Shown here: positions 42,184 to 48,930 of the stretch, in pieces
How positions within the stretch are numbered: the stretch's first letter is position 1
Layout of the letters: each line of letters opens with the position of its first letter
Assembly (NCBI RefSeq): GCF_014203225.1
Contig: NZ_JACHIO010000008.1
Span: 62,001 to 126,000 of the forward strand
Length of the DNA: 64,000 nucleotides
Direction of reading: 5' to 3'
DNA from: Granulicella mallensis
GTDB taxonomy: Bacteria > Acidobacteriota > Terriglobia > Terriglobales > Acidobacteriaceae
Position numbers and translations under genes: made by a program
Notes under the pieces: generated by a model
Told to the model about the DNA's origin: nothing
What the model saw: the letters and a program-made list of their open reading frames with translations, nothing else
The model's database searches: none

Positions 42184-42294
42184 CACGAACCGGAAGGGCA
42201 CGGTTTCAACCGTGCCATAAAGCGCGGGCCGAAGGCCCATACCGCTCTGCCGAAGGCCGGAGTGAAGGCGCAGCCGCAACGACTAAATTGCCTT
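42184..42294. repeat. REP element, copy A (upstream of the RAYT)
   Basis: Contains ACGAACCGGAAGGGCACGG, a GGCACGGTTTCAACCGTGCC hairpin, a GGGCCGAAGGCCC hairpin, then CCGAAGGCCGGAGTGAAGGC and GCAGCCGCAACGACT. Copy B (42813-42925) repeats it directly and copy C (43090-43203) inversely. Confidence 0.8.
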
Positions 42295-42340: not shown

Positions 42341-42754
42341 ATGGCCACCCCGCCGAGAACCGCCATTGCCGGCACCTTCTTCGTCACCGCGATCACCTAC
42401 AACGGCCGCCGACTCTTCCAGGTAGACACCAACGCCCAACTCCTTATCGCAACCTTGCAACACTATCGCGCCGAAGGTCTCTACAAGCTCTACTCCTTTG
42501 TAGTCATGCCGGACCACGTCCATCTGCTGCTAACGACAGACGATCTACCTAAGACCATGCAGCACATCAAAGGCGGCTTCTCCCGCCGCATTGAATCGAA
42601 GCTCCCGGTTTGGCAGCTTGGGTTTACAGACCATCTCGTTCTCGATCGCGAGCACTTTGAATCGCGCCGCCATTACATCCACGAAAACCCGGTTCGCGAA
42701 CGCCTCGTGGAGAGCGCCGAAAAGTATCCGTATTCCTCGGCGTTTCGCGGATGA
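42341..42754 (+). CDS. REP-associated tyrosine transposase (RAYT, Y1/IS200-like)
   Basis: Encodes 137 residues. HUH motif His59-x-His61 in MPDHVHLLL and a candidate nucleophile Tyr112 in HYIHENPVRERL, the RAYT signature. FFVTAITYNGRRLF is typical of the family N-terminus. RAYTs move or tidy REP sequences by single-strand chemistry; this one lies between copies A and B of one repeat, the expected arrangement. The protein is short for the family (usually 150-180 residues). Confidence 0.92.
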   Translation: MATPPRTAIAGTFFVTAITYNGRRLFQVDTNAQLLIATLQHYRAEGLYKLYSFVVMPDHVHLLLTTDDLPKTMQHIKGGFSRRIESKLPVWQLGFTDHLVLDREHFESRRHYIHENPVRERLVESAEKYPYSSAFRG

Positions 42755-43089: not shown

Positions 43090-43203
43090 AAGCAATTCAG
43101 TCGTTGCGGCTACGCCTTCACTCCAGCCTTCGGCAGAGCGGTACGGGCCTTTGGCCCAGCTTTTGCGGCACGGTTGAAACCGTGCCCTTCCGGTTCGTGG
43201 TGG
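43090..43203. repeat. REP element, copy C (inverted)
   Basis: The reverse complement of copy A, including GGCACGGTTTCAACCGTGCC. With copy B it makes an inverted pair downstream of the transposase. Confidence 0.8.
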
Positions 43204-43281
43204 ACCTAATCTATCAGCAGGAGCGGTCGCGCTTTGCGCGATGGTCCACATCTCAGAAGTTAGGTATGGGAGTGCATGACT

Positions 43282-44181
43282 CTACTTAAATGCGTCGGGA
43301 TAGGCCAACCGAATGCGTCGGGTGTCCACGTCATCAATAACACCATAGAAAATTTCTTGCCCTAGAAGCGATTTTGCCGTCGCTAATTGCTGCATCTGGT
43401 ACGGGACACTATCTTCGATTTCGCCTTCATACTGCACGAAGTGGATCTGTCCTGGCGACTGAAAGAGGCGTTGTATTTGTTCGCCCTTCTTTCCCATTTT
43501 CCCAGGAACCAACTTTCCCTTCTTGGCAGGCCCCTTAAGTGCAAAAGACGCTGGATAACGTCTGCCACGAATAGATATCCGCGAAGTGTAGATGTCAGAA
43601 GTTTCCCCAGGCCAGTCCTTAGCTATATGGGGTTCAGCAAGAATTTTGTGAAATCCGACTTTCGTCTTCTCCTCAGATAGACGATCCGTAATCTCCTCAG
43701 TATCGCTGGCCTTGATCGTTTTAACTTTAATGAACTGGTCGATATCATCTATGCTAATCATGCGAATTTTCGGTCGACCGATGCCTTTAATCGTCACCGA
43801 AGTTGTAACCCGAACGGTCGGATTTGTCTTCGTTGCGTAATTCTTTCGCTTAGTTGGATGCGTCGCGAGACGAAAAATCTCATCTCTGTTTGCGACGAAA
43901 AATAAATCCTTGCTGTAAGCAGTCGTCATCTTTCCGTTGATTCTGACGCGACTCTGAGTAAAGATGTGCTGACTTGCCATTGGCCTCGCAATGGTCAAAA
44001 TATCCTTTTCACTCTTTTTGAGAGCCTCGGCAATTTCGCCAACGGTTTTGATGGCCTTTTTGCCACGATATACAACTCTCGCAATGTTGAGATATCGTGC
44101 GCTCTTTGAAAGCAACTCAACGAAATTAGCGATTTGATCGCGGCGGTGAGATGCAGAATCGGATACAGATGTGGACGACAT
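43282..44181 (-). CDS. 299-aa protein ending the tiny-HTH operon (possible effector)
   Basis: 299 residues. Residues 30-100 look like a winged helix (KTVGEIAEALKKSEKDILTI; the HTH segment), 120-160 is a beta-rich linker, and 170-299 is a basic C-terminal domain with ETSDIYTSRI (193-202), SFALKGPAKKGK (212-223), KGEQIQRLF and FYGVIDDVDTRRI. E193/D197 before a strand ending in K216 recall the layout of a PD-(D/E)xK nuclease, but the residue two before K216 is Ala, so this assignment is weak. It starts by a TAATG overlap with the last HTH gene. GC is lower than the surrounding genes, suggesting transfer. Confidence 0.7.
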   Translation of the reverse strand: MSSTSVSDSASHRRDQIANFVELLSKSARYLNIARVVYRGKKAIKTVGEIAEALKKSEKDILTIARPMASQHIFTQSRVRINGKMTTAYSKDLFFVANRDEIFRLATHPTKRKNYATKTNPTVRVTTSVTIKGIGRPKIRMISIDDIDQFIKVKTIKASDTEEITDRLSEEKTKVGFHKILAEPHIAKDWPGETSDIYTSRISIRGRRYPASFALKGPAKKGKLVPGKMGKKGEQIQRLFQSPGQIHFVQYEGEIEDSVPYQMQQLATAKSLLGQEIFYGVIDDVDTRRIRLAYPDAFK

Positions 44182-44357
44182 TACAATTGACCACCCTTGC
44201 TCTGAAAGACACGCAGCATCTCTGATACGACTTGACGCTTTTTGCCAATAAATTTAGCTATGTTGGCCTGCGAAACTCCAGTGTCCTTCAACTGAAGAAC
44301 TATGAGCTTTTCTAACAGCTCATTTGTCCTTTGAGCCTCCGTTTTTTGCTTTTCCAT
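44181..44357 (-). CDS. Tiny HTH protein, type B (second copy)
   Basis: 58 residues, starting MEKQKTEAQRTNELLEKL. GGAGCC precedes the ATG at 44357. Residues 20-50 form an HTH-like pair of helices (VSQANIAKFIGKKRQVVSEM). It resembles the protein at 44591-44767 (LxxLVxQ...GxxQxxIAxxVGK...EML), with about the same length. It overlaps the 94-aa gene by 38 nt and the 299-aa gene by 1 nt. No known family. Confidence 0.75.
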   Translation of the reverse strand: MEKQKTEAQRTNELLEKLIVLQLKDTGVSQANIAKFIGKKRQVVSEMLRVFQSKGGQL

Positions 44358-44604
44358 TTTTGGCTCCTTTGGTCTTTTGTGCCTGGCTGATCAATTCCGC
44401 TACGCTGCCGGGTGTCGATCCAATGATTAACGCGATGTCTGGATTTCGGAACCCAAACGCTCTGAGAAGAACTGCTTCGCTACCCAGATTTCTCTTGAGA
44501 CCGTCCTTGGCATCTAACCGCGCTCGGAGTTGTAAGGCGATGGCAATCAACGCTTCGATTGGTCGCGCTTCGGTTGCCACAAACGAAGATTCATTTGATT
44601 TCAT
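44320..44604 (-). CDS. Tiny HTH protein, type A (94 aa)
   Basis: 94 residues. A helical N-terminus (PIEALIAIALQLRARLD) precedes an HTH of the sigma-region-4 style (EAVLLRAFGFRNPDIALIIG, then STPGSVAELIS) and a Lys/Gly-rich tail (KTKGAKNGKAKNGG). It shares its layout with the proteins at 44764, 44960 and 45195. It overlaps the preceding 58-aa gene by 14 nt. Confidence 0.75.
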   Translation of the reverse strand: MKSNESSFVATEARPIEALIAIALQLRARLDAKDGLKRNLGSEAVLLRAFGFRNPDIALIIGSTPGSVAELISQAQKTKGAKNGKAKNGGSKDK

Positions 44605-44767
44605 TCTTCTTCCCTTTTTGGAGAGGCTTCAGCATTTCGTTGATGGTACCTTTGCTCTTTCCGACATAGGCCGCAATTGCGTCTTGCGTACACCCAGCGG
44701 TGTGCATTTGGAATACGAGTGCTTTCAATTCAAGACTTGTATCCAAACTGGAAACGGATGGCTTCAT
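44591..44767 (-). CDS. Tiny HTH protein, type B (first copy)
   Basis: 58 residues, MKPSVSSLDTSLELKALVFQ. An HTH is seen in CTQDAIAAYVGKSKGTINEM, followed by a short Lys-rich tail. It is paralogous with the 58-aa protein at 44181-44357. It overlaps the upstream 67-aa gene by ATGA and the next gene by 14 nt. Confidence 0.75.
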   Translation of the reverse strand: MKPSVSSLDTSLELKALVFQMHTAGCTQDAIAAYVGKSKGTINEMLKPLQKGKKNEIK

Positions 44768-44967
44768 TTCGTCCCCTTTTTCTTTAACTTAAGTTTTCGG
44801 AGGCCGACCGCATTCGCAGTCATCCCCGTTAAATCTGCAACGTCCACGTTCGAGAATCCGGCACGAAGAAGGGTTTCAACCTGCGCGTCTACATCCAACC
44901 CCTTGAGAGAGATCAACAGCAAGGCACGCATCGTAAGTTCTAGTGAAATCTTTGGCTCATCAGGCAT
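44764..44967 (-). CDS. Tiny HTH protein, type A (67 aa)
   Basis: 67 residues. Helical N-terminus (ISLELTMRALLLISLKGL), an HTH (AGFSNVDVADLTGMTANAVG) and a Lys tail (LRKLKLKKKGTK). It overlaps the preceding gene by 8 nt. Same layout as the other type A proteins, the shortest of them. Confidence 0.75.
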   Translation of the reverse strand: MPDEPKISLELTMRALLLISLKGLDVDAQVETLLRAGFSNVDVADLTGMTANAVGLRKLKLKKKGTK

Positions 44968-45208
44968 CTTCTTTAGCTCCTTCTGATTTGAGATTCAATT
45001 GACTTTTCTTTCGCAGAGCAGTCAAGGCGACGTTTACCGTATTGGACGTCGTACCTACCAAATCTGCTATCTCCTTCGGGCCCATACCAGCCATTGATAG
45101 CAGTTTGATTTGCTCTCTCTGACTCTTTCCACTCACTAACCCAATCGCTACCAAACGCGTGAGCAAATCAATCTTCTTGTCCAACCCCTCGCGGTCACTT
45201 GTTGGCAT
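44960..45208 (-). CDS. Tiny HTH protein, type A (82 aa)
   Basis: 82 residues. Helical N-terminus (LDKKIDLLTRLVAIGLVSG), a clear HTH (AGMGPKEIADLVGTTSNTVN, the most canonical of the set), and a Lys-rich end. It overlaps the first gene by 14 nt. The HTH recalls sigma-70 region 4 or LuxR-type helices. Confidence 0.78.
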   Translation of the reverse strand: MPTSDREGLDKKIDLLTRLVAIGLVSGKSQREQIKLLSMAGMGPKEIADLVGTTSNTVNVALTALRKKSQLNLKSEGAKEDA

Positions 45209-45434
45209 TCTGCTTCCCCTTTTTCTTCTGTTGGTTCATTGAGGCTGATACATAGTTCGCCTCTCGACCGACAATTCGGCCTATCTCTGCCCCCGACAAG
45301 CCGTGAGTAGCCAGCAGCGCTATCTGATCACTAATCGCCGGGATCTTGTTCTGGTCCACCAACAAGCATAGAAGGTGTGCAATGACATCCAAGCGATCCC
45401 GAATTTGCTCAAATTCCGTATTTTCTCTTGCCAT
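45195..45434 (-). CDS. Tiny HTH protein, type A (79 aa), first gene of the operon
   Basis: 79 residues. The helical N-terminus (IRDRLDVIAHLLCLLVDQ), the HTH (HGLSGAEIGRIVGREANYVS) and the KKKGKQNANK tail follow the type A layout. Upstream lie AGGAG and an 11-bp palindrome CTAATNATTAG (45436-45446), a possible operator. Candidate promoter elements TTGAAA-17-TTTAAG lie before it in a 220-bp AT-rich gap. Confidence 0.75.
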   Translation of the reverse strand: MARENTEFEQIRDRLDVIAHLLCLLVDQNKIPAISDQIALLATHGLSGAEIGRIVGREANYVSASMNQQKKKGKQNANK

Positions 45435-45657: not shown

Positions 45658-48600
45658 CTAGCTGCAACCACTCGTGCTTCCGCACTCCATGCAGCGATAG
45701 CAAGACCCATTCCTCGTCATGATGCTGCCGCAGGTTCCGCACGACGGAGCATCGCCCATGTCATAGAGATCCTTCATCGCTTCGGCTGCGTGGTAGACAC
45801 CGCGATCCGCCGTAGCCAAGATGCCTGAACCCGCACCCTCCGTCGTGAGGCCGGAGTTTGCCGTCAGGTCGGGAGCGATTCCCTGCTGCGGCGGCGTGCG
45901 ATCGTTGCGCTCGAAGGCCTCGCCGAGCATGGTGTGCTGGGCGGGTTCGGCGCTTTCCGAAGCATGGGCAGGAGCAAATACAGGGGTCTCACCACTGCGC
46001 TGCGCTTCGGTCGAGATGACAGCGTCAGAGGCAGGCTTGAGGCCCGCGAAGAGGTCCAACTGCGTTCCGCTGAGGAAGCGCAACTGCATCCAGCGGAACA
46101 GGTAGTCCATGATCGACTTCGCATAGCCGATCTGCTCGTTGCCCGTCCAGCCCGAGGGCTCGAAGCGGGTGTGCGCGAACTTCTCGCAGAGCAGCTTGAG
46201 CGGCACGCCGTGCTGCAGGCACATCGAGATCGCCGTGGCGAACGAGTCCATTAGGCCGGAGATCGTCGAGCCCTCCTTCGCCATCCGGATGAAGATCTCA
46301 CCCGGGACGCCGTTGGGGTAGAGGCCGACCGTCACATAGCCCTCATGTCCGGAGAGCGAGAACTTGTGCGTGATCGAAGCCCGCTCCGCCGGCAAGCGGT
46401 GACGCATCGCACGGGGAGGAGCCTGTGCGTCGAGAGCGTCGGCGTTCTGCGTCGAGGAGAGCAGCAGCGCCGTGAGCTTGGCTTCGAGAGCAGCAACCTG
46501 CTGCTTCACCACAGCGGTCTCAGCCTGCGAGGCGGCGAGAGCGGCGGCGGAGATCGTCACCTCTTCGTTCACCTTGGTCGAGTCAACGGAAGTGCCCTTC
46601 TTGTCGGCATCCGTCTGCGCCGCGACGTTCAGCGGCTGGGTGCCCTTGGAGTTGTCGCGGTAGATCGCGACCGCCTTCAGGCCGAGACGCCAGGCCTCGG
46701 TGTAGGCCTCGGCGATGTCGTCCACCGAGCAGTCGTTGGGCAGGTTCACCGTCTTCGAGATCGCGCCCGAGAGGAACGGCTGCGTCGCCGACATCATCTT
46801 GACGTGACCGGTCCAGGCGATCGTGCGGGTTCCCTTCGCAGGCTTGAAGGAGCAATCGAACACGGCGAGGTGCTCCGGCTTGAGGGACGGTGCGCCTTCG
46901 ATGGTGCCGGTGGCGTCGATGTAGTTGACGATGCCTTCGACCTCGGACTCCTTATAGCCGAGCTTGAAGAGAGCACCGGGGACCGTGTTGTTCACGATCT
47001 TGATCATGCCGCCGCCGACCAGCTTCTTGTACTTGACCAGAGCGAGGTCAGGCTCGATGCCGGTGGTGTCGCAGTCCATCATGAAGCCGATGGTGCCGGT
47101 GGGCGCGAGCACGGTGACCTGCGAGTTGCGGTAGCCGTGCTTTTCGCCGAGCGCGAGCGCGGTGTCCCAGGCGTTCTGGCTGGCGGCCTTGAGCTCGTCG
47201 AGCTGCGGAGCAACAAACGGCTCCTTGGACGACTTCAAGCTCTTGTCGATGTTGTTGACCTCCGCGCGGTGCATGCGGATGACATCGAGGAAGGGCTCAC
47301 GGTTGACGTAGAAGCCAGGGCAGGCTCCGCCCTGCACGCCGGTCTGCTGCGTGAGCGGGGTGGCTGCGCCGAGCGGCGGGCAGTCGCCGGCGATACGCGC
47401 GGACTGCGCATAGGCATCGCCGCAGAGGATCGCGGTCAACGTAGCGGCATAGGCACGGCCGGCGTCGGAGTCGTAGGGCAGGCCGCGGTCCATCAGCAGC
47501 GCGCCGAGGTTCGCGTAGCCAAGGCCGAGCGGGCGGTAGTCGTGCGAGTTCTTTGCGATCTGCTCGGTCGGGTAGCCGGCCGCGTCCACGATGATCTCCA
47601 TCGCGGTGGTAAGGACAGCCACCGCATGGCGATAGCTGGGAATATCGAACTGGCCGCCGGGCGTCAGGAACTTCAGCAGGTTGAAGCTGGCCAGGTTGCA
47701 GGCGGAGTCATCGAGGAACATGTACTCCGAGCAGGGGTTGCTGGCGTTGATGCGCGCGGTGTTCTTGCTGGTGTGCCAGCGGTTGATGGTGGTGTCGTAC
47801 TGCATGCCCGGGTCGCCGCACTGCCAGGTGGCCTCGGCGATCTGGTGCATCAGGTCGCGAGCGCGGATCTCCTTGACCGGCTGCTTGTCCTTGACGGTGC
47901 GCGTGGTGAACATGCCGTCGTTCTCGACCGCCTGCATGAACTCATCCGTAACGCGGACGGAGTTGTTGGCGTTCTGGAAGAAGATCGAGGTGAAGGCCTC
48001 GGAGTCGGGGCTGGAACCGTCGTAACCCGCCTGCATCAGGCTCCAGGCCTTGCGCTCTTCCTTGACCTTGCACTGGATGAAGTCTTCGACGTCGGGGTGG
48101 TCGACGTTGAGGATGACCATCTTGGCCGCACGGCGGGTCTTGCCGCCGCTCTTGATGACGCCGGCGAAGGCATCGAAGCCGCGCATGAAGCTGAGCGGGC
48201 CGGAGGCCGTGCCGCCGCCCGAGAGGGTCTCCATTGAGCCACGGATCGCCGAGAGGTTCGAGCCTGCGCCCGAGCCCCACTTGAAGAGCATGCCCTCGGT
48301 CTTGGCCAGGGTCAGGATGCTATCGAGGGAGTCGTTCACCGAGTTGATGAAGCACGCCGAGCACTGCGGGCGTGTGTAGCCGGTGACGGAGAAGGCAACC
48401 TCGCCCTGCGTCGCGTCCCAGTGCCAGTTCTGCGCGTCGGAGTTCGGCTCGAGGCGGTCGCAGCCGACGTTGAACCAGACGGGCGAGTTAAATGCCGCCT
48501 TCTGATTGAGCAGCAGGTGAGCGAGCTCGTCGAAGAAGATGCTGGCAGCTTCCTCGGAGGCGAAGTAGCCGTCGCGCAGACCCCAGTCGCGGATGCTCTC

Positions 48601-48930
48601 AGCGACACGGGTGATCAGGGCGCGGACGCCGCTCTCGCGCTCCGGCGTTCCAATCCGGCCATGCAGGTACTTGCTGGCGACGATGTTGGTCGCGGTCATC
48701 GACCAGTCACTGGGCACGTCGACGTTCTTCTGCTCGAAGATGAGCTTGCCCTTGTAGTCCTGAATGACGGCATCGCGAAGCTCCCAGGTGAGCTCATCGA
48801 AGGGCGAGATCCCGGGTTTGGTGAAATGGCGACTAAATTCCAGACCGCGTGCGCTGGACGTGCGTGTAGATGCCATCGCGGCTTGTTTGCCATTCTGGAC
48901 GGGGGTGGCGGCGGTGATTGTTTTGGCCAT
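45658..48930 (-). CDS. nrdJ: Adenosylcobalamin-dependent ribonucleotide reductase (class II)
   Basis: 1090 residues. It reduces ribonucleotides to deoxyribonucleotides with a B12-derived radical. Active-site features are CSACFINSVNDSLD, NPCSEYMFLDDSACNL (with the radical-site Cys), and APTGTIGFMMDCDTTGIEPD. The C-terminal tail carries the redox cysteines and a small zinc-ribbon (CGTCGSIMTRNGSCYRCMEC). Length fits the long vitamin-B12-dependent family. Its 5' region (48931-49140) holds tandem repeats. Confidence 0.95.
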   Translation of the reverse strand: MAKTITAATPVQNGKQAAMASTRTSSARGLEFSRHFTKPGISPFDELTWELRDAVIQDYKGKLIFEQKNVDVPSDWSMTATNIVASKYLHGRIGTPERESGVRALITRVAESIRDWGLRDGYFASEEAASIFFDELAHLLLNQKAAFNSPVWFNVGCDRLEPNSDAQNWHWDATQGEVAFSVTGYTRPQCSACFINSVNDSLDSILTLAKTEGMLFKWGSGAGSNLSAIRGSMETLSGGGTASGPLSFMRGFDAFAGVIKSGGKTRRAAKMVILNVDHPDVEDFIQCKVKEERKAWSLMQAGYDGSSPDSEAFTSIFFQNANNSVRVTDEFMQAVENDGMFTTRTVKDKQPVKEIRARDLMHQIAEATWQCGDPGMQYDTTINRWHTSKNTARINASNPCSEYMFLDDSACNLASFNLLKFLTPGGQFDIPSYRHAVAVLTTAMEIIVDAAGYPTEQIAKNSHDYRPLGLGYANLGALLMDRGLPYDSDAGRAYAATLTAILCGDAYAQSARIAGDCPPLGAATPLTQQTGVQGGACPGFYVNREPFLDVIRMHRAEVNNIDKSLKSSKEPFVAPQLDELKAASQNAWDTALALGEKHGYRNSQVTVLAPTGTIGFMMDCDTTGIEPDLALVKYKKLVGGGMIKIVNNTVPGALFKLGYKESEVEGIVNYIDATGTIEGAPSLKPEHLAVFDCSFKPAKGTRTIAWTGHVKMMSATQPFLSGAISKTVNLPNDCSVDDIAEAYTEAWRLGLKAVAIYRDNSKGTQPLNVAAQTDADKKGTSVDSTKVNEEVTISAAALAASQAETAVVKQQVAALEAKLTALLLSSTQNADALDAQAPPRAMRHRLPAERASITHKFSLSGHEGYVTVGLYPNGVPGEIFIRMAKEGSTISGLMDSFATAISMCLQHGVPLKLLCEKFAHTRFEPSGWTGNEQIGYAKSIMDYLFRWMQLRFLSGTQLDLFAGLKPASDAVISTEAQRSGETPVFAPAHASESAEPAQHTMLGEAFERNDRTPPQQGIAPDLTANSGLTTEGAGSGILATADRGVYHAAEAMKDLYDMGDAPSCGTCGSIMTRNGSCYRCMECGSTSGCS

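What the first reader, a model, noticed from the sequence alone, without database searches (positions are those of the whole stretch)
43282..45434. Operon of six overlapping tiny HTH proteins ending in a 299-aa protein
Seen: seven minus-strand genes, of which the first six encode only 79, 82, 67, 58, 94 and 58 residues. Each overlaps the next (14, 8, 4, 14, 38 and 1 nt), so all are translationally coupled. Each tiny protein holds one HTH-like unit, most with Lys-rich tails, and none has a usual sensor domain. The block has lower GC than its neighbours and lies beside a RAYT/REP hot spot. I know of no described system with this layout. A multi-subunit DNA-binding complex that controls or recruits the 299-aa protein, for defence or mobile-element control, is a hypothesis.
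Basis: partly seen in the sequence, partly recalled or inferred. Interest (0 to 1): 0.9.

Follow-up and report, generated by a model that had tools for sequence, protein, structure and literature searches.

The report
Tiny DNA-binding protein arrays arming swappable effectors
A row of six very small DNA-binding proteins followed by a probable DNA-cutting enzyme belongs to an apparently undescribed gene system, found in bacteria and archaea, in which the same kind of small-protein array is attached to different enzymes that resemble known virus-defence weapons.

Summary
It is not unique. The 299-aa protein (winged helix plus an unnamed, nuclease-like C-terminal domain) has 27 relatives under titles naming some 14 bacterial and archaeal groups (many are metagenome bins). 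A leave-one-locus-out profile finds 1-6 tiny HTH genes within 2.2 kb of it in 27 of 28 loci, against 0 of 47 control loci. Where comparable, tiny genes show purifying selection; gene sets look reshuffled. Searching the window's class with the tiny profile led to arrays beside other effectors: SIR2, TIR (CAP12), Ymh and HEPN-like proteins (10 of 10 readable arrays adjoin an effector or the nuclease; an eleventh precedes a second nuclease by two genes). In the two closest relatives the window's site holds other defence-type genes (dCTP deaminase; toxin-antitoxin-chaperone). Best reading: a modular immune system in which tiny HTH arrays are the sensor or targeting part and the last gene a swappable effector. 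DNA as trigger, complex formation, nuclease activity and phage protection are inferred. A repressor/antitoxin role remains possible. I found no description in the libraries and open papers searched.

The parts
45195..45434 (-). tiny HTH gene t1, 79 aa
   Evidence: found by leave-out profile E 2e-13; 85% identical to first tiny gene of L031
44960..45208 (-). tiny HTH gene t2, 82 aa (subfamily with TTxNTVxVAL-type recognition helix)
   Evidence: leave-out E 6e-17; structure model m8009ca4ad211, pLDDT 82; 68% to L031 t2; subfamily alignment
44764..44967 (-). tiny HTH gene t3, 67 aa
   Evidence: leave-out E 1e-7; 55% to L031 t3
44591..44767 (-). tiny HTH gene t4, 58 aa
   Evidence: leave-out E 1e-8; 66% to L031 t4
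44320..44604 (-). tiny HTH gene t5, 94 aa
   Evidence: leave-out E 2e-9; only 30% to L031 t5
44181..44357 (-). tiny HTH gene t6, 58 aa, last before the effector
   Evidence: leave-out E 6e-8; AAAGGAG before its ATG
43282..44181 (-). 299-aa effector: winged helix (about residues 12-115) plus nuclease-like C-terminal domain (about 140-299)
   Evidence: 27 relatives; model mac85b7ed92e2 pLDDT 90.4; ArsR/MarR-like N-terminal fold
43531..43674 (-). codons of residues 170-217, which hold invariant E170, D189, W190, G192, E193, D196, K216 and G217 of the putative active site
   Evidence: 28-protein alignment; 26-protein alignment
42341..42754 (+). RAYT/IS200-like transposase beside the block (context, not part of the system)
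   Evidence: Pfam Y1_Tnp E 1.1e-7
45658..48930 (-). conserved neighbour (1090 aa, B12-type ribonucleotide reductase by my reading) that marks the insertion site
   Evidence: matched in 31 of 31 genomes searched, own included, some only in part; other cargo at the same site

Best explanation
The block is one member of a modular immune system. Several tiny HTH proteins, made in one coupled operon, assemble (probably through their N-terminal helix) into a multi-HTH unit that reads foreign DNA. The last gene is the effector that this unit arms. In the window the effector is a winged-helix protein with a PD-(D/E)XK-like nuclease domain, so DNA binding would place the nuclease on the invader DNA. 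In other loci the same kind of array arms SIR2 or TIR proteins (NAD+ depletion), HEPN-like proteins (RNA cleavage) or another nuclease. Shown here: the genes are real, and the four that could be compared are under purifying selection; the linkage recurs across two domains of life; tiny genes look reassorted; effectors differ between loci, once behind a recognisably orthologous three-gene cassette; the site carries known defence-type genes in close relatives. Inferred: complex formation, DNA as trigger, all enzyme activities, antiviral outcome.
For: Tiny genes within 2.2 kb of the nuclease in 27 of 28 loci by leave-one-locus-out profile; 0 of 47 control loci / 3011 ORFs. A nuclease directly follows a tiny gene in 25 of 28. 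Constraint. E170, D189, E193, D196, K216, Q235 and R238 invariant in 28 of 28, on a model whose helix-strand-strand-helix-strand order resembles that fold. Effector swap: SIR2_2 in two loci (31.6 and 29.3 bits, cutoff 24.5), CAP12-TIR (49.6, cutoff 24.7), Hypoth_Ymh in two (62.4 and 40.9, cutoff 25); five HEPN-like proteins match PADLOC PDC-M34B at E 1e-9 or better; all seven HEPN-like or Ymh proteins keep RNxxxH. The two SIR2 effectors, from different families, are 38% identical. Cassette reuse: three tiny genes in the order of L006, 62, 62 and 75% identical to it, lie in G653 before a separate winged-helix gene, a 101-aa gene and a nuclease with an ELK motif. In 250 genomes of one class one search lists 10 arrays in 9 genomes; 9 are readable and 9 of 9 adjoin an effector or the nuclease; reading G512 showed a second array, with the nuclease, so 10 of 10. 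Same site in relatives: dCTP deaminase E 1e-161, PD-T4-9 chaperone 2.7e-12, CBASS cyclase 7e-96, type II RM.
Against: No experiment. The C-terminal domain has no Pfam or PDB sequence match and lacks a conserved acid two residues before K216. The structural matches of high probability covered only the winged helix. One full-length locus (L028) has no tiny gene within 5 kb. Several extra tiny genes in nuclease loci have no recognised gene after them (L012, L013, L025), and the divergent arrays of L019 and L026 face the nuclease rather than precede it. Most flanks that I could read are housekeeping genes. Pattern scans of viral contigs confirmed no full-length relative and no t2-subfamily relative. 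Effectors other than nuclease, Ymh and HEPN-like were found only in the window's class, where I could search with the tiny profile. In 8 of 14 same-site relatives I saw no defence gene (by eye), and no random-site control was run. The tiny gene beside the SIR2 in G601 lies downstream of it and its matched stretch holds an in-frame TAG. In L031 a 10-nt near-palindrome overlaps the first tiny start, as an operator might.
Confidence: 0.62

Rival explanations
1. Regulated toxin: the tiny HTH proteins are repressors and/or antitoxins that keep a toxic last gene silent, like a type II toxin-antitoxin system with several antitoxins; invasion relieves the block.
For: HTH proteins upstream of a toxin-like gene, overlapping genes and effector types also known from toxin systems are usual for toxin-antitoxin operons; a 10-nt near-palindrome overlaps the first tiny start of L031.
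Against: One to six different HTH proteins per locus, mostly not recent duplicates of each other, is more than a repressor needs; some tiny genes are divergent from or downstream of the nuclease (L019, L026, L012); the nuclease carries its own winged helix; no clear operator palindrome was seen upstream of the window operon. None of these excludes it.
Confidence: 0.23
2. Selfish or genome-editing element: the array directs the nuclease to a fixed site for homing, transposition or plasmid exclusion rather than defence of the host.
For: Patchy distribution (2 of 396 phylum genomes), different cargo at the same site, REP/RAYT neighbour, integrase-like ORFs beside the G653 locus (by eye).
Against: SIR2, TIR and HEPN-type effectors have no obvious use in DNA mobility; I saw no recombinase common to the flanks that I could read; element ends were not compared.
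Confidence: 0.08
3. Ordinary transcription regulators that happen to lie beside a DNA-modifying protein.
For: HTH and sigma-4-like matches below cutoff; sigma-4-like structural neighbours.
Against: The linkage and the variety of attached effectors are not expected of independent regulators.
Confidence: 0.07

Closest known systems
Short prokaryotic Argonaute systems with SIR2, TIR or nuclease partners (recalled, not tested beyond family scans)
   Same: One nucleic-acid-recognising module is paired with interchangeable SIR2, TIR or nuclease effectors.
   Different: No Argonaute match in the block; recognition would be by an array of tiny HTH proteins, without a guide RNA or DNA.
CBASS / Pycsar / type III CRISPR ancillary effectors (recalled)
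   Same: Modular use of TIR (CAP12), SIR2, HEPN and nuclease effectors; the TIR here matches Pfam CAP12-PCTIR_TIR.
   Different: I saw no cyclase or CRISPR gene in the array operons that I read; no second messenger is implied.
PADLOC candidate PDC-M34
   Same: Its component PDC-M34B is a relative of the HEPN-like effector in five loci.
   Different: Its partner PDC-M34A (208 positions) was not found in 9 of 9 genomes, though the control rang nowhere; tiny HTH genes stand beside the effector instead.
SIR2-HerA
   Same: A protein with the C-terminal domain of the window nuclease lies beside SIR2 and HerA genes in MT837022 (L005).
   Different: That protein has another N-terminal region and no tiny HTH genes near it.
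Type II toxin-antitoxin operons (recalled)
   Same: Small DNA-binding proteins overlapping a toxin-like gene.
   Different: Variable number of different HTH proteins; effectors of several unrelated folds.

Membership tests
PD-(D/E)XK nuclease superfamily (299-aa C-terminal domain) | core alpha-beta-beta-beta-alpha-beta fold | tested here: inconclusive
   Model pLDDT 90.4 shows helix 170-180, strands 197-204 and 207-218, helix 235-241, strand 246-252; the fold searches gave winged-helix matches as their high-probability rows.
PD-(D/E)XK nuclease superfamily (299-aa C-terminal domain) | conserved D and (D/E)xK | tested here: not met
   D196 and K216 are invariant in 28 of 28, but the residue two before K216 is not a conserved acid; E193 could substitute (inference). 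Hence 'works like', not filed as a member.
Winged-helix proteins of ArsR/MarR type (299-aa N-terminal part) | winged-helix fold | tested here: met
Sigma-70 region 4 / LuxR / ParB HTH (tiny proteins) | curated Pfam cutoff | tested here: not met
   Matches are below cutoff, e.g. Sigma70_r4_2 20.5 bits against 25.7 for P0006; structural neighbours are of this type at weak E-values.
Restriction-modification | methyltransferase in the operon | tested here: not met
   I recognised none in the ORF list of 41-48 kb (by eye).
SIR2 effector (G058, G601 arrays) | Pfam SIR2_2 above cutoff | tested here: met
   31.6 and 29.3 bits, cutoff 24.5.
TIR effector of CAP12 type (G477 array) | Pfam cutoff | tested here: met
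   49.6 bits, cutoff 24.7.
HEPN RNase effectors | RNxxxH motif | tested here: met
   In 7 of 7.
HEPN RNase effectors | membership of a named HEPN family | tested here: inconclusive
   Hypoth_Ymh above cutoff in two (that Ymh is a HEPN family is recalled). The other five match PADLOC PDC-M34B; L024 is just below the Swt1-HEPN cutoff (26.3 against 27.5 bits), L011 far below, L160 no match (L161 and L162 not scanned with Pfam). Profiles of L160-L162 and of L011+L024 align at 98.9% probability.
Type II toxin-antitoxin | toxicity of the last gene neutralised by the small protein | not testable with these tools
   needs expression
PDC-M34 | PDC-M34A partner | tested here: inconclusive
   0 of 9 genomes, but the control rang in 0 of 14.
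Short Argonaute system | Argonaute gene | tested here: not met
   None of the 7 block proteins matches an Argonaute family in Pfam, NCBIfam or PADLOC.

The most novel reading that the evidence does not exclude
Protein-only, guide-free, sequence-specific immunity. Each tiny HTH subunit reads a short DNA word, and the set carried by a locus, drawn from a pool shared by bacteria and archaea, spells a long composite address present in an invader but absent from the host chromosome, so no methylation is needed. One array then arms a nuclease, SIR2, TIR or HEPN effector.
Probability: 0.3. Interest if true: 0.96.

Novelty: categorically new. Interest (0 to 1): 0.88.

Why it matters
If the reading holds, prokaryotes have a widespread immune architecture in which recognition is built from a handful of 60-90-residue proteins and reused with unrelated weapons. 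It would explain a class of tiny ORFs that match no curated family above cutoff, add an unnamed nuclease-like family, and offer small, recombinable DNA-recognition parts. It also makes an open question testable: how can a defence system recognise foreign DNA without a guide or a self-methylation mark?

Tried and rejected
Single-protein family scans of the window block gave only sub-cutoff matches; the MACPF_D2 match of the 299-aa protein (E 0.01; 1 of 26 members) and the BSAP5a match (E 0.02) were dismissed as chance. Close-relative scan of viral contigs: none confirmed. A1 in viral contigs: one C-terminal-only relative. t2 subfamily in viral contigs: none confirmed of 57 pattern matches. t2 in plasmids: none. 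SIR2 relatives on Rhizobium plasmids (2 of 3 records read) and in G194 have no tiny genes near them. Promoter-like sites in the region are at chance and none is on the operon's strand; terminator-like sites 5 against 3.0 expected. Repeats upstream: the window shows a terminator-like inverted repeat and a short direct repeat, L031 a 10-nt near-palindrome at the first tiny start. A domain shared by the N-termini of the TIR, Ymh and L015 proteins was suspected: weak for TIR/L015 (E 3e-5), absent for TIR/Ymh, so not claimed. The fold of the C-terminal domain alone could not be searched (both prediction jobs spent); the missing match is no evidence of a new fold. PADLOC was run on chosen ORFs of 6 of the 14 same-site loci; the other 8 were only read as ORF lists. 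G004's stretch was too short to read, and G011, G012 and G013 were not fetched. The L171 nuclease was never run against a family library (cap reached); it is called by eye from its D...ELK...Q pattern. Paper searches: nine ran and brought no description; I saw listings and abstract starts only, plus passages of PMC8195603 and PMC7159879. Only open-licence PMC papers were searchable. Names and functions of defence systems without a call number are recalled.
Full report
OBSERVATION. GC of the block is 0.472 against 0.574 for the window. The flanks are a REP/RAYT region (Y1_Tnp) and a long conserved gene that I read as a B12-type ribonucleotide reductase (nrdJ; recalled name). The window lies in G000, contig C8. 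I take the phylum to be Acidobacteriota because G509, of the same class, carries the same sequence as the Acidobacteria record L007.

RELATIVES OF THE LAST GENE. Among 61 close genomes only G000 has it; among 396 genomes of the phylum only G000 and G132. A pattern-and-tblastn scan of genome contigs (one genome for each of 84,980 species) gave 69 loci. Of these, 26 (L007-L031 and L034) encode proteins that I used as full-length, although L024 is short (255 aa); with L006 (G132) and the window they make 28. Titles name Acidobacteria, Armatimonadetes, Planctomycetes, Thaumarchaeota, Bathyarchaeota, Bacteroidetes, KSB1, Verrucomicrobia, Alphaproteobacteria, Ignavibacteria, Omnitrophota, Nitrospirales, Chloroflexi and Doudnabacteria; the Bacteroidetes name is my reading of Chryseolinea. 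Many are metagenome bins, whose labels can be wrong, but the Chryseolinea, Afipia, Bradyrhizobium and Mesorhizobium records bear strain names without the MAG mark. The other loci, plus plasmid and phage-collection hits and L076, match only in the C-terminal part or are truncated (L032, L033).

THE LAST PROTEIN. The model (pLDDT 90.4) has a winged helix at about 12-115, ArsR/MarR-like by fold and weakly by profile (CzrA, E 0.0045). The C-terminal part has no Pfam match. Invariant in 28 of 28: E170, D189, W190, G192, E193, D196, K216, G217, G230, G233, Q235, R238 among others. Their order on helix, strands and helix resembles PD-(D/E)XK nucleases, but the acid two before the lysine is not conserved. 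I therefore call it nuclease-like and do not file it as a member.

TINY GENES. I built a tiny-HTH profile from hand-picked genes and tested it by leaving out each locus and, for five close pairs, its twin: 27 of 28 loci have hits at E 1e-3 or better (87 tiny ORFs, 1-6 per locus; L028 has none), while 47 control loci with 3011 ORFs, scanned with the full profile, have none. The controls are relatives with only the C-terminal domain, plus L032 and L033. The profile found genes that I had not picked: divergent arrays in L019 and L026, and extra tiny genes in L011, L012, L013, L018, L023, L024, L025, L029, L030 and L034. In 25 of 28 loci the nuclease directly follows a tiny gene; the exceptions are L019 (divergent), L023 (transposase ORFs in between) and L028. 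Some arrays also hold 94-145-aa genes that I read as winged-helix (L013, L014, L027, L029). In G000 the only hits of the tiny profile at E 1e-3 are the six of the block.

SELECTION AND SHUFFLING. Against L031 the first four tiny proteins are 85, 68, 55 and 66% identical, dN 0.09-0.40 with dS too high to compute, but the fifth is 30% and the nuclease 35%. In six other pairs the nuclease is about as similar as the tiny proteins (75 vs 65-84; 51 vs 55-62; 49 vs 44-64; 74 vs 75; 63 vs 58; 48 vs 58), so the window/L031 contrast looks like an exchange of the 3' end. Three looser pairs in that call gave 46 vs 51, 67 vs 52 and 38 vs 54. The window nuclease is closer to several others (45% to L034) than to L031's. 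Of 89 tiny proteins (87 plus two of G058), 83 have their best match in another locus, often under another phylum or domain name, and 6 in the same locus. There are more other-locus candidates than same-locus ones, so the count alone is biased. Tails are basic (median 30% K+R, 5% D+E in the last 20 residues).

OTHER EFFECTORS. The tiny profile in 61 relatives pointed to G058, which lacks the nuclease: two tiny genes, the second overlapping a SIR2 gene. In 347 phylum genomes at E 1e-5 only G000 and G132 gave multi-gene arrays; other hits lay inside larger ORFs. A 250-genome sample of G058's class, which is the window's class, gave 9 genomes with hits at E 1e-7. Reading around them: nuclease in G132, G509 (the L007 sequence, so not new) and G512; SIR2 in G058 and G601; TIR in G477; Ymh in G525; HEPN-like 170-aa protein in G546, G570 and G512 (which has both kinds, divergently). 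That is 10 of 10 readable arrays; the array at G601:C43 runs into the contig end. In G601:C70 the tiny gene lies downstream of the SIR2; its matched stretch holds an in-frame TAG, and the ORF after it alone scores E 2.3e-14. A search of G512's family (89 genomes) then gave G653: five tiny genes, then a 152-aa winged-helix gene, a 101-aa gene and a 125-aa protein with an ELK nuclease pattern. Three of its tiny genes match the L006 cassette in order at 62, 62 and 75%, and its winged helix weakly matches the nuclease family's (E 1e-4). Nuclease loci themselves carry second effectors directly after tiny genes: HEPN-like in L011 and L024, Ymh in L030. Library support: SIR2_2, CAP12-TIR and Ymh above Pfam cutoffs; the five HEPN-like proteins match PDC-M34B, and two groups of them align as profiles at 98.9% probability; RNxxxH in all seven. 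The two SIR2 proteins are 38% identical.

THE SITE. In G002 (neighbour protein 99% identical) and G010 (93%) both flanks align and the block is replaced: a dCTP deaminase-type defence gene (PADLOC E 1e-161), and HicB- and SecB-like genes forming a toxin-antitoxin-chaperone-like set (PD-T4-9_C 2.7e-12). Next to the same gene in other same-genus genomes lie a CBASS cyclase (G005), a type II RM pair (G018), a CapH/CapP-like pair (G009) and DUF4238 (G016). So 6 of 14 readable sites hold PADLOC-recognised genes; in the other 8 I saw none by eye. For 12 of the 14 only the nrdJ side of the site was checked. No random-site control was run.

MECHANISM. A DNA-binding array is directly useful to a nuclease, but not to an NADase or RNase. 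That the same kind of array serves all of them suggests that it is the sensor, or a repressor. Multiplicity, diversity and reassortment favour sensing of a composite DNA feature; toxin-like effectors, gene overlap and a possible operator in L031 keep the repressor/antitoxin rival alive (23%). No tool here can decide.

NOVELTY. None of the block proteins is in Pfam or NCBIfam above cutoff, and PADLOC gave only weak matches for two of the tiny proteins. Nine paper searches showed no such system. Subscription journals and preprints were not searchable, so an existing description cannot be excluded.

Noticed in passing
window 45658 boundary; L087, L088, L095, L097, L099, L101: The site beside the nrdJ-like gene carries varied defence-type genes in this genus (dCTP deaminase, TAC-like, CBASS cyclase, RM, CapHP-like, DUF4238).
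   Followed up: partly
L003, L004, L005, L035-L076: A sister family has the same C-terminal nuclease-like domain, a different N-terminal region (seen in L003-L005) and no tiny genes; in L005 it lies beside SIR2 and HerA.
   Followed up: partly
L171:6381-7270: Integrase-like ORFs (read by eye) lie next to the five-tiny array of G653, hinting at a mobile element.
   Followed up: no
L018:3011-3457 and L034:3307-3762: IS200-like/RAYT-type transposases (read by eye) also lie near these two nuclease loci, as in the window.
   Followed up: no
L163:4400-5083 and L015:3319-4260: The TIR protein and a 313-aa protein upstream of the L015 array share a weak N-terminal similarity (E 3e-5), perhaps an adaptor that contacts the tiny proteins.
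   Followed up: partly
L105:2009-2341: A 110-aa ORF directly upstream of the G058 array looks by eye like a cut-off nuclease-type fragment.
   Followed up: no
L010:1687-4641: A 984-aa Eco57I/MmeI-type restriction-methylase lies directly upstream of the single-tiny nuclease locus in a planctomycete.
   Followed up: partly
window 42184-42216 and 43167-43247: REP-like repeats flank the RAYT gene and recur at the same site in G002 and G010.
   Followed up: partly
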